From: Apium graveolens
Taxonomy: Eukaryota > Streptophyta > Magnoliopsida > Apiales > Apiaceae
Length of the DNA: 64,000 nt
Assembly: GCF_009905375.1 (NCBI RefSeq)
Contig: NW_027420805.1
Span: forward strand, 1-64,000
Reading direction: 5' to 3'
In this document: positions 1,932-62,414 of the stretch, in pieces
How the letters are laid out: each line of letters starts with the position of its first letter
Numbering within the stretch: position 1 is the first letter of the stretch
Program-made: the position numbers and the translations under genes
The notes under the pieces: generated by a model
Told to the model about the DNA's origin: nothing
Seen by the model: only the letters and a program-made list of their open reading frames with translations
The model's database searches: none

Positions 1932-3554
1932 AAAATATTGGGTATTCCACTAGGATTCCAAAATATTAAAAATTCCAGTATATTAGATTTGGATTGTAAA
2001 TTTAAATGTAATATCAATGTATTCGAGGATTTTTAAACTAAAAAATATGGATTTTAATATATTTGCTACAACTTTTTATAATTTATGTAATTTCTAAATC
2101 TCTCAATTTCAAAGTATTTGTAAAAGTATACACATACAGGACACGTTTTATAAAAGTAACAATCTTTTGAAGTTGGTATTATTAGCTCAATAACTCTAGC
2201 AACATAATCTCGATTTTTCTAGTTTTGGACCCTTTTCAACAAGTAAATGTTATTAATCTAATTTTCTAAAAAATAATATCTTTTTTTGCTAAATTTTTCA
2301 AAAAAATCAAATGATATAACAGAGAATTGTAAATTAAATTATAAAAACTTTAGACTACTTTCTATGGGGTTGTAGATATGCAAATGAGTGATTCTATGTT
2401 TACCATATGTACCATTCTTGACTATTTTTTTTTGACAAGGCCATTCTAGACAATTTAAATTTTGTAGAATGATTGACTTCAACGATAAGTCTAGGGGCTG
2501 CCTTCATCACTTCTTCTCTTCTTTGTGCAAAGTTAGTAGTTTTATCTCTAAACCCCGATGTGCTTATATAGCTTATCTGGGCTTATGATCTAAACTCTGG
2601 AAACTCGATGCTAAAGCCCTTCCCTGCAATTATTTACTTTCTTTTACAGCCAAGAAAGGCCCTTATCAAAAGCAAACCCCCTTTATTAGGAAAGGAATTC
2701 ATCATTTCAATCCTTCTTGCTCTTTCGCTTCTTATCGGACGGTACTATTGCTCTTCCCGGCTTGTTGACCATGACCTGCGTTACAAATTAAGATGCAATT
2801 TGTGTTAGATCATTAGTAACCTACAATTTTTCCACTCTTCCACCTTACACACCATCTTTCTTTACATCTTAATTATCTTCCTAGCAGTACACAATAACTT
2901 AACATGAACATATCCACTTAACACATTATGTGGGACCTAAATGTGTGACGAATTTTTATAAGCCTATACCATAGAATCTTTGTTTAAACTTGCTTTCCTT
3001 AATTCTGGAAGTTCTGTGTGCCATAAGTGGTGCAGTACTTCTTCTTTTGCAATATATCGCACACTGTGAAGTCCACCATAACCCTAAAAGTCTTAATTCT
3101 TATTAGGCTGTGAATTCCACATTTTCCCCTTTATTATTAACTGTACTGCGAATAGGCCTTCCCACGGATTGTGTTTTATCGAATCACCCTAAATATGCAT
3201 CAAAATCCATTTAATTTTTAAGAATGATTCAACTGTCATAATTTTAGAAGAGCCATCATATCCACTTCATTCAAATCAAATATCAAATTCATATAGATTT
3301 TAGTATGTGGAAAAATTAAGAAGGCACCAACGATTAAAGATCACTTAGATAAACCCAACTTATTAAAATGCTTCAACATTCTAGACTAACAACCACTATC
3401 AAATCATATACATTAATTATTTAAACTAAATTTAAGGGTCTGTTATTGTTGACGATATTAATATTTTTTTGAATACTATATGAGTGTATTTCTAATTAGT
3501 GTAAAATTTGTGAAACTGAAAGTTTTGGTTAGTCGTAGCAAATTATGTGTTGAA

Positions 3555-4000
3555 GTTGAGAGCTTAGAAAACTGCCATATTTTTTACTGTTTCTTGCAAT
3601 AGAATAAGTAAAAAATTGGTTAGTATAGTATACTTCATAAAATCATTATAATAGAAATTAATACAAGTACATATATTCTTAATAATTTTGTAACATATCA
3701 TCTGCAGACAACACAGAGGGCAAGTGAAGTTGATAATTTCTTTAAAAAGTTGAAGGCCAGCCATGGAAATAGAAATGTATGCAAGTTTATGCTTGCCCCT
3801 ACCAATGGACACAATAAAGGGAGTGGGGTGAATGGTCGAACTTCATTCCAGCTTTCTAAGTTGTGTTGTCTGTTGTACTTCTGAAGTCTTATCACCAAAC
3901 TCTGTAGATTAGATTTGAACCGCAAATTTCTTTAGCTTCTAGTGGCATGGATGTAGAAGATTCTTCAACACATTCTTCATTACATATTGAGCTCAATACA
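3555..4000 (-). pseudogene. Older diverged 3' end of the F-box-like gene
   Basis: Minus-strand sequence homologous to the C-terminal half of the F-box-like gene but clearly more diverged than the main copies. It reads NLQSLVIRLQKYNRQHNLES and then VRPFTPLPLLCPLVG, against VITLQKYTRQHNRGSW and VRPFTPLPLWCRLG in the main copies. The 5' half is absent. The same diverged fragment sits at the same place in units 3 and 4, so it was part of the unit before the array expanded. It is not expected to be functional. Confidence 0.7.
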
Positions 4001-6381
4001 TTAATGATTTAGTTCGCCACTGTACAATACCAAACTTTCACTTGGGTTACCAGCACAAAAAAGTTTTTAGTAAAAACACCCGAACAATAAAATATTTTAA
4101 ATATGTTACTCCCGTTAGTCCCCTTAAATGGATAACAAAAAGTGACGTGTAACTAATGTTGCATCAAGTTTAATACCGAATTTATCACTGAACTTTCTAT
4201 CATTTTCGGTAAGGTTACCGCCTAATTTCTTTAAAAATTATTTTCTTTTTCTTTTGAGAAAAAAAAAAACTCAAATAACTTTTTCGAAAATTTAAATTGA
4301 TTGAATAACATATATTTAATAATAGGTTTTTTCAAAATCGATAATTGTATCTGATGAATAAAGTTTTTATATGTTTATTTTTGTGAATAATTACACCTTT
4401 ACTTAAAAAAATTATTTTTTTTTACTTTTACTAATAATTTTTTTAAATTTTTTGAAAAGTGTGTACACCAATTCAAGCAATATACAAAATCCAAAGGATA
4501 GTCCACGATACTACAGGTTATTGAAGGCCCCGCACACCAACTTAGGGGCTCGAGGGTTAACAAAGACATATCATTACGAGAATCAATGACACTTGAAATG
4601 TGTGTACACCAATTCACGAAATATATAAAAGCCAAGGTCCTAAACTTTACAATAAAGAGGGCAATGGATTTCAAAATGATATTACTATACTTACACTTTT
4701 AAAATCTTAGAAAAATATATACCGAATATCGGTTCTCGCTTACTGTCATACTTGCACTCGCATACGGATTGTGAGCATTATAGTGCTCAATATTATTTAA
4801 TTTTCAAACATTAATCGGGTTTTCAACGATCGAGGGAAATTTGAAAGATCGAAGAATATTAGTTCTCCACTCCAGCAAGCTACACTGAAGAACCGGGGTC
4901 TAGTTATCATACCACATTTTCGCATGGCTTAATATCTCCAAATTTTTAACATTAAGTAATTATTAACTCTCATTAAAACTTTTGTGAATACTGTGAATAC
5001 AATATCAGTGTATTTGAAGAAATAATATCTTTATCTAGCATTATGATGAAGGTAGAAAATAGGTTTAGCGTATATAGTATGATAATTATAAGATGATCTA
5101 TTACAGTATTTTGATCAAATCACCTTAAATCTGCATCAAAATCCATTTAATTCTTCAAACTGGATCAACTGTCAGATTTTTTGAAAATCGATCATATCCA
5201 CTTCAATCGAATCAAAATATTTTTTTTTAGTATGAGAAAAAATTAAAAAGGCACCAACCATTGAATATCACTTAGACAAAACTTACAAAACGCTTCAATA
5301 TTTCGAAACTAACACCTAGTGCTAAAATCATATACATTAACTATTAAAACTCTTAGAGTATATTACTATTGACTGATATTAATAATTTTGTGAATCATAT
5401 ATAATATCAGTATATTTGTAGAATTAATGTTTTTATCTCGCATGATGACAAATATGAAAAAAGATTTAGAATATATAATACCATGTGCACTCATATTTAA
5501 TTTCTTTTCTATATTAGACTTTTATGTGCACAAGAAACTACTCCCCATAAATTATGAATTTATGATGTACGTGAAGAAGGCGGCTTTCCAGACAAGAAAT
5601 GTACTTAGTTTAGTCATTTTATTGTTGAGAATGATTTTAATTTATTAAAGTAATATAGATAATTTCCCTTTGTTCACTTAACAGTGTATAGATTAACTCT
5701 TGCCGTTGTAACTATTAGCTTTATCTCACATTAATTTAGTTCGAATGAATGTGTGCAAGATCATCTGGAGTGTGTATTCAACTAAGGTTTCTTTATTTTA
5801 AGCTATAAAATGAAATTTATTATAACTTACTTTTTACAATGATTTTTTTAATATAAGTGTTGTGTTCAAGTATTATTGACGTATCAGTTTTGACTAGCAG
5901 GTCCTTTTTAATCGTGTTTAGAAGGCTTTTTCTTATGTTCCAAAACTTCATGAATTTTGCATAAGTTAGGTTCGGGGAAATTAACATATGGTAGACATAA
6001 TTAGGAAGACATGATTTTACTTGCGGAGGTTGGATGTAAGTTGAAATTCGAGTGAGATATTCTTAATTCTTCCAAATTTTTAAGGTACATAAAATTCAAC
6101 CTGATCGATGCTCTGATCTTTTACCTTTCTCAGGATTTAGAGGTCAACCACAATTGAGCAATCTGAAATTTTAAACACGGCTTTCTAAGAAAAAAAATGT
6201 GATAGATGAAACAATTTATGAAGAATATTTTTATGTTCGTTCACTTGAGTGGTTAGTCCCAAAATTTGTGAAAAAAGTCGAGAGTGTAGACACCGCATAT
6301 TTTTTCCGTAATTTATTTGCAATACATTAGGTAAAAAAGTGAATATCTATGGTATACTTCATAAAAGCACTATAATAAAAA

Positions 6382-6735
6382 TTAAAACCAATACAGATAT
6401 TCTTCGAAAATTTCGTAACATATCATCTGCAGACAACAGAGAGGGCAAGTAGAGTTGATAATTTCTTCAAAAGTAGGAGGCCAGCCATGGAAATAGAAAT
6501 GTGTTCTTATCCTTTCCTTACCCAATCGACACCATAAAGGGAGTGGGGTGAATGGTCGAACTGCATTCCAGCTTCCTCGGTTGTGCTGCCTGGTGTACTT
6601 CTGAAGCGTTATCACCATACTTTGTAAATTAGATTGAACCGGAAAATTCTTTAGTCTATGGTATATGGATGTAGCAGATTCTTCAACACAAGCTCCATTA
6701 TATATTGAGCTGAATATATGAAATGCTAGAAATGA
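6382..6735 (-). pseudogene. F-box-like gene copy 2, C-terminal fragment
   Basis: Only the C-terminal third of the gene remains. It is open from about 6618 (MVITLQKYTRQHNRGSW) to the normal stop at 6382, ending CCLQMICYEIFEEYLYWF. At about 6735 the sequence switches from gene to downstream unit spacer (GAATTGTAAATTTAAATG). Near-identical fragments lie at 48150-48434 and 56208-56545, so the same deletion allele occurs three times in the window. Confidence 0.75.
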
Positions 6736-7310
6736 ATTGTAAATTTAAATGTAATATCAATGTATTGGAGGATTTTTTAATTAAAAAATATGGATTTTAA
6801 TATATTTGCTACAACTTTTATAATTTATGTAATTTCTAAATCTCTCAATTTGAAAGTATTTGTAAAAGTATACACATATTGGACAAGTTTTATAAAAGTA
6901 ATAATCTTTTGAAGTTGGTATTATTAGCTCAATAACTCTAGCAACATAATCTCTATTTTTCTAGTTTTGGACCCTTTTTACCAAATAAATGTTATTAAGC
7001 TAATTTTCTAAAAAATAATATCTTTTTTTGCTAATTTTTTTAAAAAAATAAAATGATATAACAAGAATTGTAAATTAATTTTATAAAAACTTTAGACTAC
7101 TTTGTATGGGGTTGTAGATATGCAAATTTTTGATTCTATGTTTACCATATGTACCATTCTTGACTATTTTTTTTGACAAGGCCATTCTTGACAATTTAAA
7201 TTTTGTAGAATGTTTGACTTTAACGATAAGGCTAGGGGCTGCCTTCATCACTTCTTCTCTTCTTTGTGCAAAGTTAGTAGTTTATCTGTAAACCCACATG
7301 TGCTTATATA

Positions 7311-7930
7311 CACTACAAGAAAAATATCCATAGACATCATTTTTGGCCGATGTCTATGCTATTTGGCAACGGATGTTGATTGTCGGTGATGTCTATTCTA
7401 GACATCGGCCATAACCCGATGTCTTTACTTGCTTAGACATCGTTTCTGGCAAAAAAACTGATGTCCATACATTGTTTTTTACAAAAAAAATGTTAGAAAT
7501 TAAATAATTTAATAAATAAATTACACATATTACAACAAATTAAACATATAATGAGCTATGTTTTTTTTTCACATAGACATCGAATATTTTCATTTAGGTG
7601 ATGTAAAATTAGATATTAAATATCGATTTATTAGTAAAAGGTGATGTCTATATTGGCACTTAGACATCGTTTTTATCCCAAACAAAGTGATGTCTATGTT
7701 TATTTTAGACTTGAACATGTCAGTCTTTGACATCAGTTTTTAGGAAAAAGCGATGTATATCAACTTTTTGACATCAGTTTTTCTTCAATAAAAGTGATGT
7801 ACAATTGTCTGTGTGACATCAGTATTTATATATTAAAAGTGATGTACAATTTTTTTTTGACATCAGTATTTATTCATTAAAAGTGATGTACAATTATTTT
7901 TTTGACATAAATATTTATTCATTGAAAGTA
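7311..7930. repeat. Left subterminal repeat array of CACTA A
   Basis: About twenty copies of short motifs of the GATGTC/GACATC type occur on both strands. Toward the interior they become a semi-regular series, GACATCAGTATTTATTCATT alternating with AAGTGATGTACAATT. In En/Spm elements such arrays bind the element-encoded regulatory protein. That role here is inferred from position and arrangement only. Confidence 0.75.
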
Positions 7931-8047
7931 TTTAAACAATGAACTAACTAAACACTTATATTGAGCAACATAAATATCAAGTATCTCGTTTTATTACAGA
8001 ATCGTTCAAAACCAAACAATTGTTATATGCTTGTTAAGACATCCTTG

Positions 8048-8215
8048 CTAACATAAATATCGAGAATATAGTGTCTTAGTTAAGCCATCCCTGCTAACAG
8101 CTGCACTAAGAGGATCAAGACTTCGTTTTATAACTTCTTCAGGAGTGATCATTACTCGTTTACACAATGCATCTTCTAGTCCTGCAGCTTCGCACCTAAC
8201 AGTGACAAATAGAAT
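8048..8215 (-). pseudogene. Chimeric exon: NAC-alpha start fused to class XI myosin motor sequence
   Basis: The minus-strand exon begins after an acceptor (TTTCAG, at 8217-8216) with residues ILFV, which is how NAC-alpha continues after its KSKN exon. It then runs through VRCEAAG into LEDALCKRVMITPEEVIKRS, followed by LDPLSAAVSRDGLTKTLYSR. That stretch is characteristic of plant class XI myosin motor domains, where the family continues with LFDWLV. Here it ends YLC and a stop at 8048. The NAC-to-myosin switch lies inside one exon, so it came from recombination, not splicing. It cannot form a motor, and any product would be a fusion peptide. The gene families are recognised from memory, and a database search would settle the exact breakpoint. 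Confidence 0.75.
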
Positions 8216-8317
8216 CTGAAAGAATAAATCAAAATTAGATGCTGAAAATGAGACTGATTCGTGAAGAGCAAAAAAATGGACGCACATTAAGTAAATGTTA
8301 CTGAGTAAGAAACTCAC

Positions 8318-8448
8318 ATTCTTGCTCTTCTTAACGGTGACACGGATGACCCCAGGGATGGGCTTCATCCCAAGCTTAAGAATGACCTTCAAATTCTTCT
8401 CCTCAATCCCACTCTGCTTTGATCTACCACTTACGCCTCCTTGGCCTC
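8318..8448 (-). pseudogene. Captured NAC-alpha exon
   Basis: This is a 131-bp minus-strand exon with an acceptor (CTTAG) at 8450-8449 and a donor (AAT|GTGAGT) at 8317-8316. It reads GRSKQSGIEEKN and then KLGMKPIPGVIRVTVKKSKN. This matches the start of the NAC domain in the alpha subunit of the nascent polypeptide-associated complex, the ribosome-bound factor that contacts emerging chains. The frame is open throughout. The spacer to the next exon (8216-8317) behaves as a short intron, and splicing would place KSKN directly before ILFV of the chimeric exon, as in genuine NAC-alpha. The rest of the NAC domain and the UBA domain are missing, so this is a captured gene piece, not a working gene. 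Confidence 0.8.
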
Positions 8449-9602
8449 CTAAGAATCAAATTTTCAATAACTTAGAAAGTAATGTGCTTGTGGATTACAG
8501 TTAACTGAAAAGCCAACTAGAGGCATATATTTATAACCGTCACTATAAGCTTTAGAAAGTAATGTGATTGTGGATTACGAAATTAAAAAATTAAAAAAAA
8601 TTAAAAACCAAAACAAACCTCGGAAATATTCTGATGCTGCAAGACATTAATATTGTAAAAAAAGAAACATGCAAACTGAAAAACCTAACCTGGGCAAGTG
8701 AACCTTCTCGGGCACAAACGTCATAGTATTTAGTGTCAACTCACAGTGAGTGCTTCATGTTTTAATTTTGTGGACATGTGTAGTTGCTCAAACCTACCAC
8801 AAAAAATATATGTTTGACTAATATTAACGATCTTGGCAGCAGCACAACCAACCAATAAATCAATTAAATATCATGTTCTATTTTGGCAGAAATGCATAAT
8901 AAACATCAACAATCACACTCACACCAGCTCCGTACTAACACCGGAACAAACATAAAAGGAAACCATCCTTAATTACAAAATAAATACAGCCTAGACGTTT
9001 ATCCAAATAATGGCACTTAGCAGTAATGTATAATAGTTAACGCAACTTGTTCTATCATGGATATTTTTTTACTGCTCCTGGCTGTAAATTTAGGAGACCG
9101 GATAAATGAAAAGCAATGTTGCAATGGGGAGGAGGCTCTTGAATTATTGAGCACTGGACACAATGTCTAAACCTTTTGACTTTTGAGTATGTTGCATAGG
9201 AAATTCTACCTATATTTTATGAATTAATTATGGTTATTAAAATGAAAATACATGAACTTTACCTCAACAGAATATGCTATTCCGATAAAAAAAGAGAAAA
9301 GTCCAATGAACAATGGTGCAGAATGAAACAAAATTTTAAACTATACAAAGTAAGAGATCATTAACAGCAGTTGGTAACTTTGTATTCTAGAATAGGATTC
9401 AGGACTCATTTGGTGAGTAAACTGATACTAATAGTAGACTTCTATGCAACAGGCAAATCATGAGCCACCTTCAGGAAAATTAAATATCAAAATTCTTTTT
9501 AGTGTCATTACATTAATTAGTCATCTTAAACTTATTTAATATCAGCCTTCATGAAAATGAAGGACAGTATCACTTCTAGAAGAATTTAAAACATGCATAT
9601 AC
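8449..9602. other. CACTA A interior without recognisable exon
   Basis: About 1.15 kb between the NAC-alpha and ABCG exons. A minus-strand stretch around 8690-8760 reads HCELTL-like and VCAREGSLAQV-like residues and might be part of another captured exon, but I cannot assign it to a family. The rest is AT-rich and broken in all frames. It is probably intron or captured non-coding sequence. Confidence 0.4.
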
Positions 9603-9691
9603 CTTCCTGGCTTCACTACACCGCCAATGTTATTCAGGATCGTGATCTTATACCTCTTTGGCTTATACATTCTCAATGCAGTTAACAGTCT
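9603..9691 (-). pseudogene. Captured ABCG (PDR-type) exon b
   Basis: An 89-bp minus-strand exon starts after a GATGCAG acceptor and ends before a GTATAT donor (GT at 9602-9601). It is open and reads RLLTALRMYKPKRYK followed by ITILNNIGGVVKPGR. In plant pleiotropic-drug-resistance ABCG transporters this block lies directly before the Walker A exon (MTLLLGPPGSGKTT). No Walker A sequence follows here, so no ATPase domain can be made. The exon phase matches the upstream exon at 9793-9873. The family is recognised from memory, and the exon borders are seen in the sequence. Confidence 0.75.
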
Positions 9692-9792
9692 CTGCATCAA
9701 GTTACAAGAAAGAATTATTACTAAAAAATATAGCACATTCCAAATACTGCCTTACAGCGGGCATTTAGAGATAAAAAGAATAAATTACAGAC

Positions 9793-9873
9793 CTCTACTA
9801 AATCACGAGTATAATTTATTAAGGTAGGTAAATCTCTGCTCCCAACTTGTACTTTTGTCGAGATTGTCAAGTC
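9793..9873 (-). pseudogene. Captured ABCG (PDR-type) exon a
   Basis: An 81-bp minus-strand exon of exactly 27 codons lies between a TTTCAG acceptor (AG at 9875-9874) and a GTCTGT donor (GT at 9792-9791). It reads DLTISTKVQVGSRDLPTLIN and then YTRDLVE. This is the segment of PDR-type ABCG N-terminal regions that carries the V-GSR-LPTL-N signature shortly before the first nucleotide-binding domain. With exon b it preserves two adjacent exons and the intron between them, which points to capture at DNA level rather than from mRNA. Confidence 0.75.
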
Positions 9874-10950
9874 CTGAAAGCATGCATCAGAAAAACCAAA
9901 TATTTCCATCCCCGGATATCAGAAAAAAGTAATACAGAGTTTAGGTACACGTAAATCAAGTTTATGCATTATTATCACTCAAGAAAGAGTCCATAACAAG
10001 ACTATCACGGAATTAAGCAGATGAAACTTACACTAAATAAATCAAAACAGTCACTTAAATTTTCAATTGAATAAATCATGAAATTAGCTTTCCTTTTTAA
10101 CTTTATGCAGCGATTTGAATCGGTGAATGCTGATAAGTCCGTTGTGCTTCCTTTGGGTGTGAACCTTGAAGGAGTATTACTTTTATCCCTACATTAAAAA
10201 ATAACAAAAGGCAAAATAATCTTGCTAACACTAGTGATAAAAGTGGTGTGTGAAGCAAGTTGTATGCATTTTTTTACTGATGGATGTAGGATTATATATT
10301 GGTTATCCTTCTGTCTATTCTCTAGCCTTTCTCTTGATTTCCAGCTTTAAAGTTCCTTCCTGTTGCAAATTAAGTTGGCATATTTCATTTATTCTGACTT
10401 TTAAGGGAACCTGTCCTGCCGGTACAACAATTAGAATCTAAAATTCCCAGGTACAGTTTAGTGAAGATGTCTAAAACCATGATGGTGAAATTGGACCACA
10501 AGATTGTGTATCATCTCTGGTTTCATACTAAAAATAGATTTATACTAACACTTATTTGGCCCATTTAAAAATCACTAACGCAACAAAAAAACCATAATTA
10601 TTTAGTATAGAATTAGAAGAAACAAGAACATGATAGGATAAAATAATTCAGTGACTGTAAATATTTTTGGACTTGTAGCCCACACCAAAATAGCCTGAAT
10701 AAATAGTAATGCTTAAACATTGTTCATATAGAACAAGAGAAAACATACTCGGCAATTAAAAAGGAATCTGGCTTTAAATAAGATTATACATGAAGATCTA
10801 AAATCCCAACAACTTATTACATCTATAAATCACCTTCTCCAAAAAGCAAAACAGCCTTTTTCAATGTAAGTGTCCTCACAATTGAAACAAGAAAATCATC
10901 ACATAGGTCATAGCCTTTATCTTCGAAAGCTTAATTGCTGAGTGAAGTGA
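9874..10950. other. CACTA A interior, unassigned
   Basis: I see no gene I can name here. Two stretches look somewhat coding. One is on the minus strand at about 10800-10925 (residues GYDLCDDFLVSIV, then TLTLKKAVLLFGEGD). The other is around 10120-10190, open on both strands. Both may be further captured fragments. The remainder is AT-rich and closed. Confidence 0.35.
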
Positions 10951-10959
10951 AGCCATATA

Positions 10960-11340
10960 ACAACAAATTTAGGGTTTCGAATAAGGAACTTCAAATAAAA
11001 TTTAATTTAATAAAAACATTTAGGGTTTCCAATTAAAAAAAACCCCAATTTTACAAATTAGGGTTTCGAATTCAAAAACCATCAATTTATAAAACTCGTT
11101 TCAAGTAGTGAAGATCAGTTCGATTCGAGTACATAGATAACTTACCAAAGTACAGTGCTTAACAGAGAGATCGTGAGTGGAGAGATTGTGACCAGTTGAG
11201 AGAGATGTGAGAGGAGGTGAGATGGTGAGCGGAGTTTACAGAGATTGTGAGTGGAGAGAGACGTTTGAGAGAGAGGGGTTCGAGAGAGAGTGAGCAGAGA
11301 GAGAGATTTTGTTTTTAGTTTTTAATTTTAGTTTTTAGCT
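10960..11340 (-). promoter_or_regulatory. CT-rich, telo-box-bearing region upstream of the captured exons
   Basis: Read on the minus strand, this region has a long CT-rich tract (GAGAGA on the plus strand, 11150-11310) followed by three AAACCCTA telo-box-like motifs (plus-strand TTAGGGTTT near 10969, 11022 and 11066). Such motifs are common in plant promoters and 5' leaders of translation-related genes. It lies upstream of all captured exons, in their orientation. It may be the captured 5' region of the NAC-alpha or another donor gene and could drive a chimeric transcript. This is inference from motif content and position. Confidence 0.4.
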
Positions 11341-11505
11341 TTTTGTTTTTAGATTTTAATTATCTGAAGTGAGGAATGGGGGGAACAAAAAATTGGTTAA
11401 GGGGGGAAATTTTGGGAGGGGAAAATTTTGGAAGGAGGGGATTTTGACTAAGGGGGGAAAATGAAGGTGAGCGAGAATTTTTATTTTTTGTTTGTAAAGT
11501 TTAGA

Positions 11506-11646
11506 CATTGGTTTAATTATAACCGATGTCTTTAAATAACAAAGACATCAGAAAAACACGGGGTGATGTCATTAAAACTTTTAACATCAGTGGCACCGTC
11601 AACCGATGTCTAATGTGTGATGTCTATTGACATTTTTGTTGTAGTG
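11506..11646. repeat. Right subterminal repeat array of CACTA A
   Basis: Inverted counterpart of the left subterminal array. AGACATTGG, CCGATGTC, GACATCAG and GTGATGTC motifs lead into the terminal repeat ending GTTGTAGTG at 11646. Confidence 0.75.
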
Positions 11647-12589
11647 ATAGATTATGTGGGCTTGTGATCTAAACTCTGGGAACAGGATGCTAAAGCCCTT
11701 CCCTACAATTATTTACTTTCTTTTACATCCAAGAAAGGCCCTTATGAAAAGCAAACCCCCTTTAGTAGTAGCAAAGGAATTCATCATTTCAATCCTTCTT
11801 GCTCTTTAGCTTCTTATCGGACGGTACTATTGCTCTTCCAGGCTTGTTGACCATGACCTGCATCATAAATTAAGATGCAATTTGTGTTAGATCATTAGTA
11901 ACCTACAATTTTTCCACTCTGCCACCTTACACACCATCTTTCTTTACATCTTAATTATCTTCCTAGCAGTACACAATAACTTAACATGAACATATCCACT
12001 TAACACATTATGTGGGACCTAAATGTGTGACGAATTTTTATAAGCCTATACCAGAGAATCTTTGTTTAAACTTGCTTTCCTTAATTCTGGAAGTTCTATG
12101 TGCCATAAGTGGACAGTACTACTTCTTTTGCAATATATCGCACACAGTGCAGTCCACGTTTCCCCTTTATTATTAACTATACTGCGAATAGGCCTTCCAA
12201 TGGATTATGTTCTGATCGAATCACCCAAAATATGCGTCAAAATCCATTTAATTTTTAAGAATGATTCAACTGTCATAATTTGAGAAGAGCCATCCTATCC
12301 ACTTCATTCAAATCAAATATCAAATTCGTATAGATTTTTAGTATGCGGAAAAATTAAGAAGGCACCAACGATTAAAGATCACTTAGATAAACCCAAGTTA
12401 TTAAAATGCTTCAACATTCGAGACTAACACCCACTATCACAATTATATACATTAATTATTTAAACTAAATTTAAGGGTGTGTGATTGTTGACGATATCAA
12501 TACTTTTTTGAATACTATATGAGTGTATTTCTAATTAGTGTAAAAATTTGTGAAAACTGAAAGTTTTGGTTAGTCGTGCAAATTATGTG

Positions 12590-12725
12590 TTGTCTGTTGT
12601 ACTTCTGAAGTCTTTTCACCAAACTCTATAGATAAGATTTGAACGCAAATTTCTTTAGCTTCTAGTGGATGGATGTAGCAGATTCTTCAACACATGCTTC
12701 ATTACATATTGAGCTCAATATATTA
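12590..12725 (-). pseudogene. Shortened older F-box-like fragment (unit 2)
   Basis: Homologue of the older 3' fragment at 3555-4000 from which about 300 bp is missing. AATTATGTGTTG joins directly to TCTGTTGTAC. In the longer copies TGTGTTG stands at both edges of the missing part, so a deletion between direct 7-bp repeats explains it. The same shortened form is found near 29330, 30255 and 62415. Confidence 0.7.
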
Positions 12726-15802: not shown

Positions 15803-15859
15803 AAAACTGTGTATATGTTATTTGTTTTGAGAAGTGTAAATGGTTATTGTAGAAAGGGG

Positions 15860-16439: not shown

Positions 16440-18091
16440 TAGATTAGATTTGTTAATTGTTTTTGAAAATATTGGGTATTCCACTAGGATTCCAAAATGT
16501 TAAAAATTCCAGTATATTAGATTTGATTTGTAAATTTAAATGTAATATCAATGTATTGCAGGATTTTTAAATTAAAAAATATGGATTTTAATATATTGGC
16601 TGCAACTTTTTATAATTTATGTAATTTCTAAATCTCTCAATTTCAAAGTATTTGTAAAAGTATACACATACAGGATAAGTTTTATAAAAGTAACAATCTT
16701 TTGAAGTTGGTATTATTAGCTCAATAACTCTAGCAACATAATCTCTATTTTTCTAGTTTGGACCCTTTTCAACAAGTAAATGTTATTAATCTAATTTTCT
16801 AAAAAATAATATCTTTTTTTGCTAATTTTTTCAAAAAAATCAAATTATATAACAGAGAATTGTAAATTAATTTTATAAAAACTTTAGACTATTCTGTATG
16901 GGGTTGTAGATATGCAATTGCGTGATTCTATGTTTACCATACGTACCATTCTTGACTATTTTTTTTGACAAGTCCATTCTTGACAATTTAAATTTTGTAG
17001 AATGTTTGACTTTAACGATAAGTCTAGGGGCTTGCCTTCATCACTTCTTCTATTCTTTGTGCAAAGTTAGTAGTTTTATCTGTAACCCCCATGTGCTTAT
17101 ATAGCTTATCTGGGCTTATGATCTAAACTCTGGAAACAGGATGCTAAAACCCTTCCCCTGCAATTATTTACTTTCTTTTACAGCCAAGAAAGGCCCTTAT
17201 GAAAAGCAAACCCCCTTTAGTAGTAGATAAGGAATTCATCATTTCAATCCTTCTTGCTCTTTCGCTTCTTATCGGACGGTACTATTGCTCTTCCCCGGCT
17301 TGTTGACCATGACATGCGTTACAAATTAACATGCAATTTGTGTTAGATCATTAGTAACCTATAATTTTTTCCACTCTTCCACCTTACACACCATCTTTCT
17401 TTACATCTTAATTATCTTCCTAGCAGGACACAATAACTTAACATGAACATATCCACTTAATACATTTTGTGGGACCTAAATGTGTGACGAATTTTTATAA
17501 GCCTATACGATATAATCTTTGTTTAAACTTGCTTTCCTTAATTCCGGAAGTTCTGTGTGCCATAAGTGGTGCAGTACTTCTTCTTTTGCAATATATGGCA
17601 CGCAGTGAAGTCCACCATAACCCTAAAAGTCTCAATTCTTATTAGGCTGCGAATTCCACATTTTCCCCTTTATTATTAACTGTACTGCGAATAGGCCTTC
17701 CTGCGTATTGTGTTCTGATCAAATCACCCTAAATATGCATCAAAATACATTTAATTTTTAAGAATGATTCAACTGTCATAATTTTAGAAGAGCCATCCTA
17801 TCCACTTCATTCGAATCAAATATCAAATTCGTATATATTTTTAGTATGTGGAAAAATTAAGAAGGCACCAACGATTAAAGATCACCTAGATAAACCAAAC
17901 TTATTAAAATGCTTCAACATTCGAGACTAACACCCACTATTAAAATCATATACATTAATCATTAAAACTAAATTTAGGGGTGTGTGATTGTTGACGATAT
18001 TTATAATTTTTTGAATACTATATGAGTGTATTTCTAATTAGTGTAAAAATTTGTGAAAACTGAAAGTTTTGGTTAGTCGTGCAAATTATGT

Positions 18092-22286: not shown

Positions 22287-23936
22287 TAGATTAGATTTGT
22301 TAATTATTTTTGAAAATATTGGGTATTCCACTAGGATTCCAAAATATTAAAAATTCCAGTATATTAGATTTGATTTGTAAATTTAAATGTAATATCAATG
22401 TATTGCAGGATTTTTAAATTAAAAAATATGGATTTTAATATATTCGCTACAACTTTTTATAATTTATGTAATTTCTAAATCTCTCAATTTCAAAGTATTT
22501 GTAAAAGTATACACATACAGGACACGTTTTACAAAAGTAACAATCTTTTGAAGTTGGTATTATTAGCTCAATAACTCTAGCAACATAATCCCTATTTTTC
22601 TAGTTTTGGACCCTTTTCAACAAGTAAATGTTATTAATCGAATTTTCTAAAAAATAATATCTTTTTTTGCTAATTTTTTCAAAAAAATCAAATTATATAA
22701 CAGAGAATTATAAATTAATTTTATAAAAACTTTAGACTATTTTGTATGGGGTTGTAGATATGCAAATGTGTGATTCTATGTTTTCCATACGTACCATTCT
22801 TGACTATTTTTTTGACAAGGCCATTCTTCACAATTTAAATTTTGTAGAATGTTTGACTTTAACGATAAGTCTAGGGGCTGCCTTCATCACTTCTTCTCTT
22901 CTTTGTGCAAAGTTAGTAGTTTTATCTGTAAACCCTGATGTGCTTATATAGCTTATCTGGGCTTATGATCTAAACTCTGGAAACAGGATGCTAAAACCCT
23001 TCCCTGCAATTATTTACTTTCTTTTACAGCCAAGAAAGGCCCTTATCAAAAGCAAACCCCCTTTAGTAGTAGGAAAGGAATTCATCATTTCAATCCTTCT
23101 TGCTCTTTCGCTTCTTATCGGACGTACTATTGCTCTTCCGGCTTGTTGACCATGACCTGCGTCACAAATTAAGATACAATTTGGGTTAGATCATTAGTAA
23201 TCTATAATTTTTCCACTCTTCCACCTTACACACCATCTTTTTTTACATCTTAATTATCTTCCTAGGAGTACACAATAACTTAACATGAACATATCCACTT
23301 AACACATTATGTGGGACCTAAATGTGTGACGAATTTTTATAAGCCTATACCATATAATCTTTGTTTAAACTTGTTTTCCTTAATTCTGGAAGTTCTGTGT
23401 GTCATAAGTGGTGCAGTACTTCTTCTTTTGCAATATATCGCACGCTGTGAAGTCCACCATAACCCTAAAAGTCTTAATTCTTATTAGGCTGCGAATTCCA
23501 CATTTTCTCCTTTATTATTAACTGTACTGCGAATTCCTGCGTATTGTGTTCTGATCAAATCACCCTAAATATGCATCAAAATCCATTTAATTTTTAAGAA
23601 TGATTCAACTGTCATAATTTTAGAAGAGCCATCCTATCCACTTCATTCAAATCAAATATCAAATTCGTATATATTTTTAGTATGTGGAAAAATTAAGAAG
23701 GCACCAACGATTAAAGATCACCTAGATAAACCAAACTTATTAAAATGCTTCAACATTCGAGACTAACACCCACTATCAAAATCATATACATTAATTATTT
23801 AAACTAAATTTAAGGGTGTGTGATTGTTGACGATATTTATAATTTTTTGAATACTATATGAGTGTATTTCTAATTAGTTTAAAAATTTGTGAAAACTGAA
23901 AGTTTTTGTTAGTCGTGCAAATTATGTGTTGAAATT

Positions 23937-27486: not shown

Positions 27487-27641
27487 CTTGTACTATTGAC
27501 GGGCCTAAAATATTCTAAAAGGGATGCTTAGTAGGTGTATTTGAGGGGATTTTAAATGATCTTTTTGGATGTTAAAGATATTCATATTTACTTAAATTAG
27601 ATTTTAAGAAATTTAGAAAATCGTGTCGTATTCAATTAGAT

Positions 27642-47189: not shown

Positions 47190-48149
47190 TTGTCAATTGT
47201 TTTTGAAATATTGGGTATTCCACTAGGATTGCAAAATATTTAAAATTCCAGTATATTAGATTTGATTGGTCACTTTAAATGTAATATCAATGTAGTAGAG
47301 AATTTTTAAATTCAAAAATATGGATTTTAATATATTTGCTACAACTTTTTATAATTTATGTAATTTCTAAATCTCTCAATTTTAAAGTATTTGTAAAAGT
47401 ATACACATACTCAACAAGTTTTCAAGTGAACGTGTTGAATTAGCCCGTAGTTATAAAAGTAAAAATCTTTTGAAGTTGGTATTATTAGCCCAATAACTCT
47501 AGCAAATAATCTCTATTTTTCTAGGTTTTGGCCATTTTCAACAAGTAAATGTTATTAAGGTAATTTTCTAAAAAATAATATCTTTTTTTGCTAAATTTTT
47601 CAAAAAAATAAATGATATATCAGAGAATTTTAAATTAATTTTATACAAACTTTAGACTAATTGGTATGGGGTTGTAGATATGTAAATGCTTGATTCTATG
47701 TTTACCATGTGTACTATTCTTCACCTTTTTTTATCAGCCCATTCTTGACAATTTAAATTTTGTAGCATGTTTGACTTTAACAATAAGGCTAGGGGCTGCG
47801 TTCATCACTTCTTCTCTTCTTTGTGCAAAGTTAGTAGTTTATGTGTAAACCCGATGTGCTTATATAGCTTATGTGGGCTTGTGATCTAAACTCTGGAAAC
47901 AAGATGCTAAAGCCCTTCCCTACAATTATTTACTTTCTTTTATAGCCAAGAAAGGCCCTTATCAAAGCAAACCCCCTTTATTAGTAGGAAAGTAATTCAT
48001 CATTTCAATCCTTCTTGCTCTTTCGGTTCTTATCGGGCGGTACTCTTACTCTTCCCGGCTTGTTGACCATGACCTGCGTCACAAATTAAGATGCAATTTG
48101 TGTTAGGTCATTAGTAACCAACAATTGTTCCACTCTTCCACCTTACACA

Positions 48150-49021: not shown

Positions 49022-49814
49022 CACTACAAGAAAAATATCCATAGACATCATTTTTTGGCCGATGTCTATGCTATTTGGCAACGGATGTTGATGTCGGTGA
49101 TGTCTATTCTAGACATCGGCCATAACCCGATGTCTTTACTTGCTTAGACATCGTTCTGGAAAAAAAAACTGATGTCCACACATTGTTTTTTACAAAAAAA
49201 ATGTTAGAAATAAATAATTTAATAAATAAATTACACATATTACAACAAATTAAACATATAATGAGCTATGTTTTTTTCCACATAGACATCGAATATTTTC
49301 ATTTAGGTGATGTAAAATTAGATATTAAATATCGATTTATTTAGTAAAAGGTGATGTCTATATTGGCACTTAGACATCGGTTTTATCCCAAACATAGTGA
49401 TGTCTATGTTTATTTTAGACTTGAACATGTCAGTCTTTGACATCAGTTTTTTTAGGAGAAAGCGATGTATATCAACTTTTTTGACATCAGTTTTCTTCAA
49501 TAAAAGTGATGTACAATTGTCTGTGTGACATCAGTATTTATATATTAAAAGTGATGTACAATTTTTTTTGACATCAGTATTTATTCATTAAAAGTGATGT
49601 ACAATTATTTTTTTGACATAAGTATTTATTCATTGAAAGTATTTTAAACAATGAACTAACTAAACACTTATATTGAGCAACATAAATATCAAGTATCTCG
49701 TTTTATTACAGAATCGTTCAAAACCAAACAATTGTTATATGCTTGTTAAGACATCCTTGCTAACATAAATATCGAGAATATAGTGTCTTAGTTAAGCCAT
49801 CCCTGCTAACAGCT
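49022..49814. mobile_element. CACTA A copy C, truncated to its left 0.8 kb
   Basis: It begins CACTACAAGAAAAATATCC and follows element A to the last codons of the myosin-like exon (equivalent of 8102). At AGCT (49811-49814) it switches to array unit start CTTTATCTCACATTAATT. Both parents carry AGCT at this point, so the join has 4-bp microhomology. It lacks the right end and could not transpose. Confidence 0.85.
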
Positions 49815-51756: not shown

Positions 51757-53379
51757 AAAATATTGGGTATTCCACTAGGATTCCCAAAATATTAAAAATT
51801 CCAGTATATTAGATTTGGATTGTAAATTTAAATGTAATATCAATGTATTCGAGGATTTTTAAACTAAAAAATATGGATTTTAATATATTTGCTACAACTT
51901 TTTATAATTATGTAATTTCTAAATCTCTCAATTTCAAAGTATTTGTAAAAGTATACACATACAGGACACGTTTTTATAAAAGTAACAATCTTTTGAAGTT
52001 GGTATTATTAGCTCAATAACTCTAGCAACATAATCTCGATTTTTCTAGTTTTGGACCCTTTTCAACAAGTAAATGTTATTAATCTAATTTTCTAAAAAAT
52101 AATATCTTTTTTTGCTAATTTTTCAAAAAAATCAAATGATATAACAGAGAATTGTAAATTAAATTTATTAAAAACTTTAGACTACTTTCTATGGGGTTGT
52201 AGATATGCAAATGAGTGATTCTATGTTACCATATGTACCATTCTTGACTATTTTTTTTTTTGACAAGGCCATTCTAGACAATTTAAATTTTGTAGAATGA
52301 TTGACTTCAACGATAAGTCTAGGGGCTGCCTTCATCACTTCTTCTCTTCTTTGTGCAAAGTTAGTAGTTTTATCTCTTAAACCCCGATGTGCTTATATAG
52401 CTTATCTGGGCTTATGATCTAAACTCTGGAAACTCGATGCTAAAGCCCTTCCCTGCAATTATTTTACTTTCTTTACAGCCAAGAAAGGCCCTTACAAAAG
52501 CAAACCCCCTTTATTAGGAAAGGAATTCATCATTTCAATCCTTCTGCTCTTTCGCTTCTTATCGGACGGTACTATTGCTCTTCCCGGCTTGTTGACCATG
52601 ACCTGCGTTACAAATTAAGATGCAATTTGTGTTAGATCATTAGTAACCTACAATTTTTCACTCTTCCACCTTACACACCATCTTCTTTACATCTAATTAT
52701 CTTCCTAGCAGTACACAATAACTTACATGAACATATCCACTTACACATTATGTGGGACCTAAATGTGTGACGAATTTTTATAAGCCTATACCATAGAATC
52801 TTTGTTTTAAACTTGCTTTCCTTAATTCTGGAAGTTCTGTGTGCCATAAGTGGTGCAGTACTTCTTTCTTTTGCAATATATCGCACACTGTGAAGTCCAC
52901 CATAACCCTAAAAGTCTTAATTCTTATTAGGCTGTGAATTCCACATTTTCCCCTTTATTATTAACTGTACTGCGAATAGGCCTTCCCACGGATTGTGTTT
53001 TATCGAATCACCCTAAATATGCATCAAAATCCATTTAATTTTTAAGAATGATTCAACTGTCATAATTTTAGAAGAGCCATCATATCCACTTCATTCAAAT
53101 CAAATATCAAATTCATATAGATTTTTAGTATGTGGAAAAATTAAGAAGGCACCAACGATTAAAGATCACTTAGATAACCCAACTTATTAAAATGCTTCAA
53201 CATTCTAGACTAACAACCACTATCAAAATCATATACATTAATTATTTAAACTAAATTTAAGGGTCTGTTATTGTTGACGATATTAATATTTTTTTGAATA
53301 CTATATGAGTGTATTTCTAATTAGTGTAAAAATTTGTGAAAACTGAAAGTTTTGGTTAGTCGTGCAAATTATGTGTTGA

Positions 53380-56545: not shown

Positions 56546-57875
56546 GAAATGCTAGAAATGAATTGTAAATTTAAATGTAATATCAATGTATTGGAGGATT
56601 TTTTAATTAAAAAATATGGATTTTAATATATTTGCTACAACTTTTATAATTTATGTAATTTCTAAATCTCTCAATTTGAAAGTATTTGTAAAAGTATACA
56701 CATATTGGACAAGTTTTATAAAAGTAATAATCTTTGAAGTTGGTATTATTAGCTCAATAACTCTAGCAACATAATCTCTATTTTTCTAGTTTTGGACCCT
56801 TTTTACCAAATAAATGTTATTAAGCTAATTTTCTAAAAAATAATATCTTTTTTTTGCTAATTTTTTTAAAAAAATAAAATGATATAACAAGAATTGTAAA
56901 TTAATTTTATAAAAACTTTAGACTACTTTGTATGGGGTTGTAGATATGCAAATTTTGATTCTATGTTTACCATATGTACCATTCTTGACTATTTTTTTTT
57001 GACAAGGCATTCTGACAATTTAAATTTTGTAGAATGTTTGACTTTAACGATAAGGCTTGGGGCTGCCTTCATCACTTCTTCTCTTCTTTGTGCAAAGTTA
57101 GTAGTTTATCTGTAAACCCACATGTGCTTATATACACTACAAGAAAAATATCCATAGACATCATTTTTTTGGCCGATGTCTATGCTATTTGGCAACGGAT
57201 GTTGATGCTCGGTGATGTCTATTCTAGACATCGGCCATAACCCGATGTCTTTACTTGCTTAGACATCGTTTCTGGCAAAAAAACTGATGTCCATACATTG
57301 TTTTTTACAAAAAAAATGTTAGAAATAAATAATTTAATAAATAAATTACACATATTACAACAAATTAAACATATAATGAGCTATGTTTTTTTTTTCACAT
57401 AGACATCGAATATTTTCATTTAGGTGATGTAAAAATTAGATATTAAATATCGATTTATTTAGTAAAAGGTGATGTCTATATTGGCACTTAGACATCGGTT
57501 TTATCCCAAACAAAGTGATGTCTATGTTTATTTTAGACTTGAACATGTCAGTCTTTGACATCAGTTTTTTAGGAAAAAGCGATGTATATCAACTTTTTTG
57601 ACATCAGTTTTTCTTCAATAAAGTGATGTACAATTGTCTGTGTGACATCAGTATTTATATATTAAAAGTGATGTACAATTTTTTTTTGACATCAGTATTT
57701 ATTCATTAAAAGTGATGTACAATTATTTTTTTGACATAAATATTTATTCATTGAAAGTATTTAAACAATGAACTAACTAAACACTTATATTGAGCAACAT
57801 AAATATCAAGTATCTCGTTTTATTACAGAATCGTTCAAAACCAAACAATTGTTAATGCTTGTTAAGACATCCTTG

Positions 57876-58043
57876 CTAACATAAATATCGAGAATATAGT
57901 GTCTTAGTTAAGCCATCCCTGCTAACAGCTGCACTAAGAGGATCAAGACTTCGTTTTATAACTTCTTCGGGAGTGATCATTACTCGTTTACACAATGCAT
58001 CTTCTAGTCCTGCAGCTTCGCACCTAACAGTGACAAATAGAAT
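57876..58043 (-). pseudogene. Chimeric NAC-alpha/myosin XI exon, second copy
   Basis: Same exon as 8048-8215: acceptor, ILFV start, then LEDALCKRVMITPEEVIKRS and the stop after TLYSRYLC. The protein-level sequence is the same as in the first copy. Confidence 0.75.
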
Positions 58044-58147
58044 CTGAAAAGAATAAATCAAAAATTAGATGCTGAAAATGAGACTGATTCGTGAAGAGCA
58101 AAAAAATGGACGCACATTAAGTAAATGTTACTGAGTAAGAAACTCAC

Positions 58148-58275
58148 ATTCTTGCTCTTCTTAACGGTGACACGGCTGACCCCAGGGATGGGCTTCATCC
58201 CAAGCTTAAGAATGACCTTCAAATTCTTCTCCTCAATCCACTCTGCTTTGATCTACCACTTAGCCTCCTTGGCTC
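58148..58275 (-). pseudogene. Captured NAC-alpha exon, second copy
   Basis: Equivalent of 8318-8448 but three bases shorter through three separate single-base losses (in CCC, ACGCC and GGCCTCC contexts). The frame of its 5' part is disturbed. The core motif is kept, with VSRV in place of VIRV. Confidence 0.75.
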
Positions 58276-59430
58276 CTAAGAATCAAATTTTCAATAACTT
58301 AGAAAGTAATGTGCTTGTGGATTACAGTTAACTGAAAAGCCAACTAGAGGCATATATTTATAACCGTCACTATAAGCTTTAGAAAGTAATGTGATTGTGG
58401 ATTACGAAATTAAAAAATTAAAAAAAATTAAAAACCAAAACAAACCTCGGAAATATTCTGATGCTGCAAGACATTAATATTGTAAAAAAAGAAACATGCA
58501 AACTGAAAAACCTAACCTGGGCAAGTGAACCTTCTCGGGCACAAACGTCATAGTATTTTAGTGTCAACTCACAGTGAGTGCTTCCATGTTTTAATTTTGT
58601 GGACATGTGTAGTTGCTCAAACCTACCACAAAAAATATATGTTTGACTAATATTAACGATCTTGGCAGCAGCACAACCAACCAATAAATCAATTAAATAT
58701 CATGTTCTATTTTGGCAGAAATGCATAATAAACATCAACAATCACACTCACACCAGCTCCGTACTAACACCGGAACAAACATAAAAGGAAACCATCCTTA
58801 ATTACAAAATAAATACAGCCTAGACGTTTATCCAAATAATGGCACTTAGCAGTAATGTATAATAGTTAACGCAACTTGTTCTATCATGGATATTTTTTTA
58901 CTGCTCCTGGCTGTAAATTTAGGAGACCGGATAAATGAAAAGCAATGTTGCAATGGGGAGGAGGCTCTTGAATTATTGAGCACTGGACACAATGTCTAAA
59001 CCTTTTGACTTTTGAGTATGTTGCATAGGAAATTCTACCTATATTTTATGAATTAATTATGGTTATTAAATGAAAATACATGAACTTTACCTCAACAGAA
59101 TATGCTATTCCGATAAAAAAAGAGAAAAGTCCAATGAACAATGGTGCAGAATGAAACAAAATTTTAAACTATACAAAGTAAGAGATCATTAACAGCAGTT
59201 GGTAACTTTGTATTCTAGAATAGGATTCAGGACTCATTTGGTGAGTAAACTGATACTAATAGTAGACTTCTATGCAACAGGCAAATCATGAGCCACCTTC
59301 AGGAAAATTAAATATCAAAATTCTTTTTAGTGTCATTACATTAATTAGTCATCTTAAACTTATTTAATATCAGCCTTCATGAAAATGAAGGACAGTATCA
59401 CTTCTAGAAGAATTTAAAACATGCATATAC

Positions 59431-59519
59431 CTTCCTGGCTTCACTACACCGCCAATGTTATTCAGGATCGTGATCTTATACCTCTTTGGCTTATACATTC
59501 TCAATGCAGTTAACAGTCT
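59431..59519 (-). pseudogene. Captured ABCG (PDR-type) exon b, second copy
   Basis: 89 bp, unchanged in length and splice sites compared with 9603-9691. Confidence 0.75.
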
Positions 59520-59619
59520 CTGCATCAAGTTACAAGAAAGAATTATTACTAAAAAATATAGCACATTCCAATACTGCCTTACAGCGGGCATTTAGAGATA
59601 AAAGAATAAAATTACAGAC

Positions 59620-59700
59620 CTCTACTAAATCACGAGTATAATTTATTAAGGTAGGTAAATCTCTGCTCCCAACTTGTACTTTTGTCGAGATTGTCAAGTC
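59620..59700 (-). pseudogene. Captured ABCG (PDR-type) exon a, second copy
   Basis: 81 bp, unchanged in length and splice sites compared with 9793-9873. Confidence 0.75.
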
Positions 59701-62414
59701 CTGAAAGCATGCATCAGAAAAACCAAATATTTCCATCCCCGGATATCAGAAAAAAGTAATACAGAGTTTAGGTACACGTAAATCAAGTTTATGCATTATT
59801 ATCACTCAAGAAAGAGTCCATAACAAGACTATCACGGAATTAAGCAGATGAAACTTACACTAAATAAATCAAAACAGTCACTTAAATTTTCAATTGAATA
59901 ATCATGAAATTAGCTTTCCTTTTAACTTTATGCAGCGATTTGAATCGGTGAATGCTGATAAGTCCGTTGTGCTTCCTTTGGGTGTGAACCTTGAAGGAGT
60001 ATTACTTTTATCCCTACATTAAAAAATAACAAAAGGCAAAATAATCTTGCTAACACTAGTTGATAAAAGTGGTGTGTGAAGCAAGTTGTATGCATTTTTT
60101 TACTGATGGATGTAGGATTATATATTGGTTATCCTTCTGTCTATTCTCTAGCCTTTCTCTTGATTTCCAGCTTTAAAGTTCCTTCCTGTTGCAAATTAAG
60201 TTGGCATATTTCATTTATTCTGAACTTTTAAGGGAACCTGTCCTGCCGGTACAACAATTAGAATCTAAAATTCCCAGGTACAGTTTAGTGAAGATGTCTA
60301 AAACCATGATGGTGAAATTGGACCACAAGATTGTGTATCATCTCTGGTTTCATACTAAAATAGATTTATACTAACACTTATTTGGCCCATTTAAAAATCA
60401 CTAACGCAACAAAAAAACCATAATTATTTAGTATAGAATTAGAAGAAACAAGAACATGATAGGATAAAATAATTCAGTGACTGTAAATATTTTTGGACTT
60501 GTAGCCCACACCAAAATAGCCTGAATAAATAGTAATGCTTAAACATTGTTCATATAGAACAAGAGAAAACATACTCGGCAATTAAAAAGGAATCTGGCTT
60601 TAAATAAGATTATACATGAAGATCTAAAATCCCAACAACTTATTACATCTATAAATCACCTTCTCCAAAAAGCAAAACAGCCTTTTTCAATGTAAGTGTC
60701 CTCACAATTGAAACAAGAAAATCATCACATAGGTCATAGCCTTTATCTTCGAAAGCTTAATTGCTGAGTGAAGTGAAGCCATATAACAACAAATTTAGGG
60801 TTTCGAATAAGGAACTTCAAATAAAATTTAATTTAATAAAAACATTTAGGGTTTCCAATTAAAAAAAACCCCAATTTTACAAATTAGGGTTTCGAATTCA
60901 AAAACCATCAATTTATAAAACTCGTTTTCAAGTAGTGAAGATCAGTTCGATTCGAGTACATAGATAACTTACCAAAGTACAGTGCTTAACAGAGAGATCG
61001 TGAGTGGAGAGATTGTGACCAGTTGAGAGAGATGTGAGAGGAGGTGAGATGGTGAGCGGAGTTTACAGAGATTGTGAGTGGAGAGAGACGTTTGAGAGAG
61101 AGGGGTTCGAGAGAGAGTGAGCAGAGAGAGAGATTTTGTTTTTAGTTTTTAATTTTAGTTTTTAGCTTTTTGTTTTTCGATTTTAATTATCTGAAGTGAG
61201 GAATGGGGGAACAAAAAATTGGTTAAGGGGGGAAATTTTGGGAGGGGAAAATTTTGGAAGGAGGGGATTTTGACTAAGGGGGGAAAATGAAGGTGAGCGA
61301 GAATTTTTATTTTTTGTTTGTAAAGTTTAGACATTGGTTTAATTATAACCGATGTCTTTAAATAACAAAGACATCAGAAAAACACGGGGTGATGTCATTA
61401 AAACTTTTAACATCAGTGGCACCGTCCAACCGATGTCTAATGTGTGATGTCTATTGACATTTTTGTTGTAGTGATAGATTATGTGGGCTTGTGATCTAAA
61501 CTCTGGGAACAGGATGCTAAAGCCCTTCCCTACAATTATTTACTTTCTTTTACATCCAAGAAAGGCCCTTATGAAAAGCAAACCCCCTTTAGTAGTAGCA
61601 AAGGAATTCATCATTTCAATCCTTCTTGCTCTTTAGCTTCTTATCGGACGGTACTATTGCTCTTCCAGGCTTGTTGACCATGACCTGCATCATAATTAAG
61701 ATGCAATTTGTGTTAGATCATTAGTAACCTACAATTTTTCCACTCTGCCACCTTACACACCATCTTTCTTTACATCTTAATTATCTTCCTAGCAGTACAC
61801 AATAACTTAACATGAACATATCCACTTAACACATTATGTGGGACCTAAATGTGTGACGAATTTTTATAAGCCTATACCAGAGAATCTTTGTTTAAACTTG
61901 CTTTCCTTAATTCTGGAAGTTCTATGTGCCATAAGTGGACAGTACTACTTCTTTTGCAATATATCGCAACAGTGCAGTCCACGTTTCCCTTTATTATTAA
62001 CTATACTGCGAATAGGCCTTCCAATGGATTATGTTCTGATCGAATCACCCAAAATATGCGTCAAAATCCATTTAATTTTTAAGAATGATTCAACTGTCAT
62101 AATTTGAGAAGAGCCATCCTATCCACTTCATTCAAATCAAATATCAAATTCGTATAGATTTTTAGTATGCGGAAAAATTAAGAAGGCACCAACGATTAAA
62201 GATCACTTAGATAAACCCAACTTATTAAAATGCTTCAACATTCGAGACTAACACCCACTATCACAATTATATACATTAATTATTTAAACTAAATTTAAGG
62301 GTGTGTGATTGTTGACGATATCAATACTTTTTGAATACTATATGAGTGTATTTCTAATTAGTGTAAAAATTTGTGAAAACTGAAAGTTTTGGTTAGTCGT
62401 GCAAATTATGTGTT

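What the first reader, a model, noticed from the sequence alone, without database searches (positions are those of the whole stretch)
7311..11646. A Pack-CACTA element carrying pieces of at least three host genes
Seen: CACTA termini, ATA target copies, subterminal arrays, and minus-strand exons with GT-AG borders resembling NAC-alpha (8318-8448), myosin XI (8048-8215) and PDR-type ABCG (9603-9691, 9793-9873). All lie in one orientation. No transposase was seen. Known: CACTA and MULE elements can capture host exons. Inference: this is a multi-gene capture that may be transcribed as one chimeric unit. The combination appears undescribed as far as I can tell without a search.
Basis: partly seen in the sequence, partly recalled or inferred. 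Interest (0 to 1): 0.85.

Follow-up and report, generated by a model that had tools for sequence, protein, structure and literature searches.

The report
Pack-CACTA transposon with three gene fragments
A plant jumping gene, apparently from the celery-carrot family, has picked up pieces of three unrelated host genes, two of them fused in frame within one exon; it is a clear new example of a kind of element already known from soybean, morning glory, maize and Arabidopsis.

Summary
7311-11646 is a complete non-autonomous CACTA element: 29-nt inverted ends (90% complementary), ATA target duplication, subterminal arrays. The window proves its insertion: the locus is a tandem array, in which five sister sites are empty with a single ATA and three are filled (two full copies, one cut to 792 bp). 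Cargo is genuine: NAC-alpha, a myosin motor exon (XI by name of a hit and recall), and two exons plus intron of an Apiaceae ABC transporter (49 of 56 residues identical to a celery gene model), all on the minus strand. A celery gene model has the same junction and upstream element sequence, so the fused exon exists outside this window. A single in-frame transcript over all three genes is not supported: with predicted splice sites ABCG to NAC-alpha shifts frame and stops. The copies stem from one insertion; the 14-kb block holding both full copies differs mainly by single-base indels, so it is a very recent duplication or an assembly duplicate. Multi-gene CACTA captures are known (Tgm-Express1, Tpn1, Pack-CACTA): a new member of a known kind.

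The parts
7308..7310 (.). left target-site duplicate ATA
7311..7339 (+). left terminal inverted repeat, CACTACAAGAAAAAT...
   Evidence: I1, 29 nt, 90%
7340..7930 (.). left subterminal array: GACATCGG-type motifs and a 44-45-nt direct-repeat ladder
8048..8215 (-). chimeric exon: start of a NAC-alpha exon (ILFV), 7 nt ending in the likely myosin acceptor (CTGTTAG), then the myosin motor exon from 8195 down; open to the stop at 8048
8216..8317 (-). NAC-alpha intron (GT-AG)
8318..8448 (-). NAC-alpha exon (GRSKQSGIEEKNLKVILKLGMKPIPGVIRVTVKKSKN)
9603..9691 (-). ABCG exon, RLLTALRM...VVKPGR
9692..9792 (-). ABCG intron, GT-AG, captured with its two exons in donor order
9793..9873 (-). ABCG exon, DLTISTKVQVGSRDLPTLINYTRDLVE
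10959..11310 (.). AGGGTTT repeats and GA-rich stretch near the right end; possible promoter or 5' untranslated region for minus-strand transcription (by appearance only)
11500..11617 (.). short right subterminal region, GACATCGG motifs on the minus strand
11618..11646 (-). right terminal inverted repeat
11647..11649 (.). right target-site duplicate ATA
57135..61473 (+). second full copy, same flanks and TSD, 99.2% identical
49022..49814 (+). third copy, only the left 792 bp (97.5% identical); joined to array sequence at a 4-nt AGCT microhomology
2568..2570 (.). empty target site, single ATA
17101..17103 (.). empty target site, single ATA
22948..22950 (.). empty target site, single ATA
47864..47866 (.). 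empty target site, single ATA
52397..52399 (.). empty target site, single ATA (counterpart of 2568 in the repeated 14-kb block)

Best explanation
A non-autonomous Pack-CACTA element. Shown: it has CACTA ends, entered one ATA site in one unit of a tandem array, and was then copied with its unit. Shown: its interior consists partly of genomic DNA (exons with introns) resembling three unrelated host genes, the ABCG and NAC-alpha exons in donor order. Inferred: the pieces were gathered at DNA level in an Apiaceae plant, by fusion of neighbouring insertions or by aberrant repair at microhomologies, and transposase came in trans from an autonomous CACTA. Inferred: if transcribed from the right end, minus-strand exons can be spliced, and NAC-alpha plus the chimeric exon gives a short in-frame NAC-alpha/myosin peptide; ABCG exons spliced to it by the predicted sites would run into a stop.
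For: Ends and TSD; five empty sister sites with single ATA, three filled; left flanks of the other two filled copies 98.6 and 99.2% identical to the first, those of other units at most 95.8%, so one insertion then duplication; cargo homologies; introns kept with GT-AG; no transposase family in Pfam scans; the same NAC-alpha/myosin junction in celery P0001, 69 of 72 residues identical, whose residues 1-29 also match element-internal DNA of the second copy, 24 of 29.
Against: No RNA data. The myosin match alone is below Pfam's cut-off, and the ABCG piece is recognised only by two Apiaceae proteins. The two full copies differ in frame: 3 single-base deletions in the NAC-alpha exon of the second, 2 upstream in the first, so an open frame is not kept in every copy unless these are base errors. 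Donor DNA could not be fetched, so capture borders are read from proteins. Other genomic copies could not be searched (genome search did not complete).
Confidence: 0.93

Rival explanations
1. The NAC-alpha/myosin chimeric exon has become a host gene: transcribed, translated and kept by selection in celery and relatives.
For: Same in-frame junction in a celery gene model; in the first copy the frame is open for 135 codons from stop to stop, even through the intron; AgCh tags are used for cv. Challenger, whose annotation used Iso-Seq (PMC12148408, passages; the tag formats differ, so the link is inferred).
Against: The second copy has three single-base deletions in the NAC-alpha exon; the peptide keeps only a fragment of either domain; gene models inside transposons are common (general knowledge); no expression or dN/dS could be obtained.
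Confidence: 0.07
2. The two full copies are one copy assembled twice: the 14.2-kb block 1-14180 / 49823-64000 is an assembly duplicate or two alleles.
For: BLAST pieces over the block: 27 mismatches against 135 gap openings. MAFFT gives 102 substitutions to 107 indels, mostly one base beside the same base; three sister-unit pairs give 115 to 17, 214 to 41 and 105 to 17.
Against: The truncated third copy, with the same flanks, shows that true duplication of the filled unit did occur; a recent real duplication with base errors on top would look the same.
Confidence: 0.4
3. An assembly chimera mimics a multi-gene capture.
For: The assembly seems to have base errors.
Against: Empty sites match both element ends exactly; the same NAC-alpha/myosin junction occurs in a separate celery gene model. 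The joint between ABCG and NAC-alpha has no such second witness outside the window.
Confidence: 0.02

Closest known systems
Tgm-Express1, soybean CACTA in the wp allele (PMC1947982; abstract and passages seen)
   Same: Gene-carrying CACTA, 5.7 kb, intronic and exonic pieces of five unrelated host genes, spliced into many chimeric transcripts
   Different: Other cargo; sits in an intron of a known gene; expression shown there, not here; here two fragments are fused inside one exon
Tpn1 family, Japanese morning glory (PMC5105172; passages seen; Kawasaki and Nitasaka 2004 seen only in reference lists)
   Same: Non-autonomous CACTA, 28-bp TIRs, 3-bp AT-rich TSDs, interior replaced by captured genic DNA, chimeric transcripts in a known case
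   Different: Other family, host and cargo; transposase-bearing relatives are known there
Pack-CACTA / Pack-TYPE elements of Arabidopsis, rice and maize (PMC8903248, sections 9-10; PMC13317346, section 7 and passages; Catoni 2019 not held, known through these)
   Same: Non-autonomous CACTA with coding DNA, often from several loci in maize
   Different: Apiaceae cargo; multiplied here by tandem duplication of the host locus, re-transposition after capture not shown directly

Membership tests
CACTA (En/Spm) superfamily | terminal inverted repeats beginning CACTA | tested here: met
   29 nt, 90% complementary, both ends start CACTACAA
CACTA (En/Spm) superfamily | 3-bp target-site duplication | tested here: met
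   ATA on both sides; single ATA in 5 empty sister sites
CACTA (En/Spm) superfamily | subterminal arrays of short direct and inverted repeats | tested here: met
   definition in PMC8978399 (passages)
CACTA (En/Spm) superfamily | moved by a CACTA transposase | not testable with these tools
   no transposase inside; a second, cut-down CACTA in the window shares the first 15 nt of the terminus
Pack-CACTA | no own transposase | tested here: met
   no transposase family in Pfam scans, most but not all of each of six frames given
Pack-CACTA | fragments of host coding genes inside | tested here: met
   NAC-alpha, myosin, ABCG
Pack-CACTA | captured at DNA level, introns kept | tested here: met
   ABCG and NAC-alpha introns with GT-AG; likely myosin acceptor kept
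Pack-CACTA | present at other genomic loci with the same termini | tested here: inconclusive
   The genome search did not complete (8 tries); a celery protein with the same junction and upstream sequence implies another copy or the same one in another assembly
Pack-CACTA | captured exons transcribed | not testable with these tools
   no RNA data

The most novel reading that the evidence does not exclude
A CACTA capture joined the first 13 or so bases of a NAC-alpha exon to the tail of a myosin intron so that the frame runs on, making a new exon 'KKSKN-ILFV-T(V/I)RC-EAAGLEDALCKR' that travels with the element in celery-like plants and is expressed as a short new protein that could interfere with either donor.
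Probability: 0.07. Interest if true: 0.55.

Novelty: new member of a known kind. Interest (0 to 1): 0.36.

Why it matters
It is an unusually well-documented capture: empty and filled target sites lie side by side in one array, and the fused exon shows at base level how a transposon can make a new exon by joining an exon start of one gene to an intron end of another. If expressed, it would be a test case for exon shuffling by CACTA elements in Apiaceae crops.

Tried and rejected
Other cargo: GC-richer stretches at 8690-8780, 9080-9150, 10100-10170 and 10400-10470 (one search lists others too) look exon-like by eye; two pieces gave no PDB match, an earlier reading of the first gave none, and Pfam scans gave nothing. 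They are not claimed as genes.

One in-frame ABCG/NAC-alpha/myosin protein: rejected for the predicted acceptor (stop after eight codons); 3 of 11 other AG sites tested near the start of the NAC-alpha exon would restore the frame, but nothing supports their use.

Host species: the array's 229-residue ORF matched 2 proteins of 58 candidates, both unnamed and from short contigs, so the species was not settled; Apiaceae, near celery, is inferred.

Papers: celery + CACTA gave 54 papers, 15 listed, many of them hits to Cactaceae, none about celery CACTA elements by title; Apium graveolens + gene capture + transposon gave one unrelated paper.
Full report
What is there. The window (64,000 bases, 30.8% GC, no N) is largely a tandem array of units of about 5.8 kb, plus a 14.2-kb block (1-14180) that recurs at 49823-64000 at 98.8%. 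The element at 7311-11646 has 29-nt terminal inverted repeats, 90% complementary, beginning CACTACAAGAAAA at the left and CACTACAACAAAA at the right, and an ATA duplicate on each side. Left subterminal repeats include a ladder of 44-45 nt, and GACATCGG-type motifs occur at both ends.

Proof of insertion. The 500 bases on each side of the element match sister units in which left and right flank overlap by three bases, a single ATA: 2568-2570, 17101-17103, 22948-22950, 47864-47866 and 52397-52399. Three sites are filled: 7311, 49022 and 57135. Because the 14.2-kb block is repeated, the pairs 2568/52397 and 7311/57135 are not independent; counting each pair once leaves four empty and two filled sites. 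A further unit, near 28.56 kb, lacks part of the region and was not counted. The left 500 bases of the other two filled sites are 99.2 and 98.6% identical to the first, those of all other matches at most 95.8%, so one insertion was followed by duplication. The third copy keeps only its left 792 bp and is joined to array sequence at AGCT, four bases found on both sides: a microhomology deletion.

Cargo. NAC-alpha: Pfam PF01849, 27.7 bits against a cut-off of 21.3, and PDB NAC-alpha chains to 1.9e-07. Myosin: PDB 7dhw, 'Motor domain of myosin', 1e-10, residues 47-94 of the joined query; in the protein search (474 hits, 120 listed) 41 of the first 42 rows carry Pfam myosin head, one of them named myosin-11-like from Tanacetum; Pfam alone gives 17.4 bits, below its cut-off of 33.3. 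That the class is myosin XI rests on that name and on recall. ABCG: 58 residues from two exons match the celery protein AgCh_014659 (1.8e-23) and the carrot protein DCAR_0310090 (2.4e-21), the only 2 hits with E up to 10 among 26 candidates; over 56 residues 49 and 47 are identical. Pfam and PDB did not recognise this piece. That these are PDR-type is recalled. The exons have GT-AG borders, and the ABCG intron lies between its exons in donor order. All three genes lie on the minus strand.

The chimeric exon. Exon 8048-8215 begins ATTCTATTTGTCA, giving ILFV, which continues the NAC-alpha sequence KKSKN (compare P0043). Seven bases, CTGTTAG, follow, and then GTGCGA, where the myosin exon seems to begin. 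Among 25 fetched proteins with the myosin motif, P0001 included, 23 read R before C(D/E), the others W and K, and what precedes differs between them. This is as expected if gene finders often read through an intron ending in AG before GTGCGA, though one (P0007) reads AELLRCE, which looks like spliced myosin. I infer that the capture kept the 3' end of a myosin intron. With the NAC-alpha acceptor the frame runs on into myosin to a stop at 8048; with the myosin acceptor it stops soon.

A second witness. The celery protein P0001 (AgCh_010096, 96 residues) has the same junction, 69 of 72 residues identical to the first copy's spliced reading. It was the only one of 124 fetched proteins with both motifs; 354 further hits were not listed and not seen. 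Its residues 1-29 match a reading of the second copy upstream of the NAC-alpha exon, 24 of 29 (58520-58606), so it comes from a copy of this element, not only from a similar fusion. The AgCh tag is used for celery cv. Challenger, a PacBio HiFi assembly annotated with Iso-Seq (PMC12148408, passages), although the printed tag format there differs. Whether the window itself is celery was not settled.

Transcription. Joining both ABCG exons to the NAC-alpha exon at its predicted acceptor shifts the frame and stops after eight codons. Right-end GA-rich and AGGGTTT stretches could be a promoter region, by appearance only.

Copies and errors. The two full copies differ by 10 substitutions and 27 gap columns. 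Over the whole 14.2-kb block, BLAST pieces give 27 mismatches and 135 gap openings; MAFFT gives 102 substitutions and 107 indels; three sister-unit pairs give 115 to 17, 214 to 41 and 105 to 17. The indels are mostly one base beside the same base. I read this as base-calling errors on top of a very recent, or artefactual, duplication. Frame breaks in single copies, of which the second copy has three in the NAC-alpha exon and the first two upstream, should therefore not be over-read in either direction.

Known or new. A CACTA with five host fragments, alternatively spliced as chimeric exons, is known from soybean (PMC1947982, abstract and passages). Tpn1 elements of morning glory capture genic DNA and have 3-bp AT-rich duplications (PMC5105172, passages). 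[quoted passage not shown] PMC13317346, section 7 and passages). No paper in the library held CACTA, nascent polypeptide-associated complex and myosin together. The cargo combination and its chimeric exon were not met in the listings; the kind of element is not new.

Noticed in passing
about 33641-42272: A second CACTA-like insertion in the array: right terminus CACTACAAGAAAAATGCAATCAGACAACGG at 42272, ACAACGG/CCGTTGT motifs, left terminus missing together with about 1.1 kb of the unit. Minus-strand ORFs at 36036-36320 and 36392-36727 look like degraded CACTA proteins from recall only; Pfam gave just a weak POT-family match to the second (E 0.027).
   Followed up: partly
15095-15817, 20922-21678 (two pieces), 26764-27492, 42066-42818 and others, minus strand: The tandem array carries a repeated ORF, 240-250 codons where whole; one member had no Pfam match and only two protein hits, both unnamed (97% and 68% identity). 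At 42066-42818 the frame runs into the second CACTA. It recalls plant F-box-like proteins by eye only.
   Followed up: partly
1-14180 and 49823-64000: A 14.2-kb block repeated with differences dominated by single-base indels, unlike sister units: very recent duplication, alleles or an assembly duplicate.
   Followed up: partly
8472-8498 and 8552-8578; 7967-7989 and 8050-8072: Short direct repeats inside the element (27 nt at 96%, 23 nt at 83%), the second lying at the myosin fragment's border; possible traces of template switching during capture.
   Followed up: no
10105-10197, plus strand: A GC-richer stretch that reads as a 30-residue ORF with its own ATG on the plus strand; possible fourth fragment in the other orientation, no PDB or Pfam match.
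   Followed up: partly
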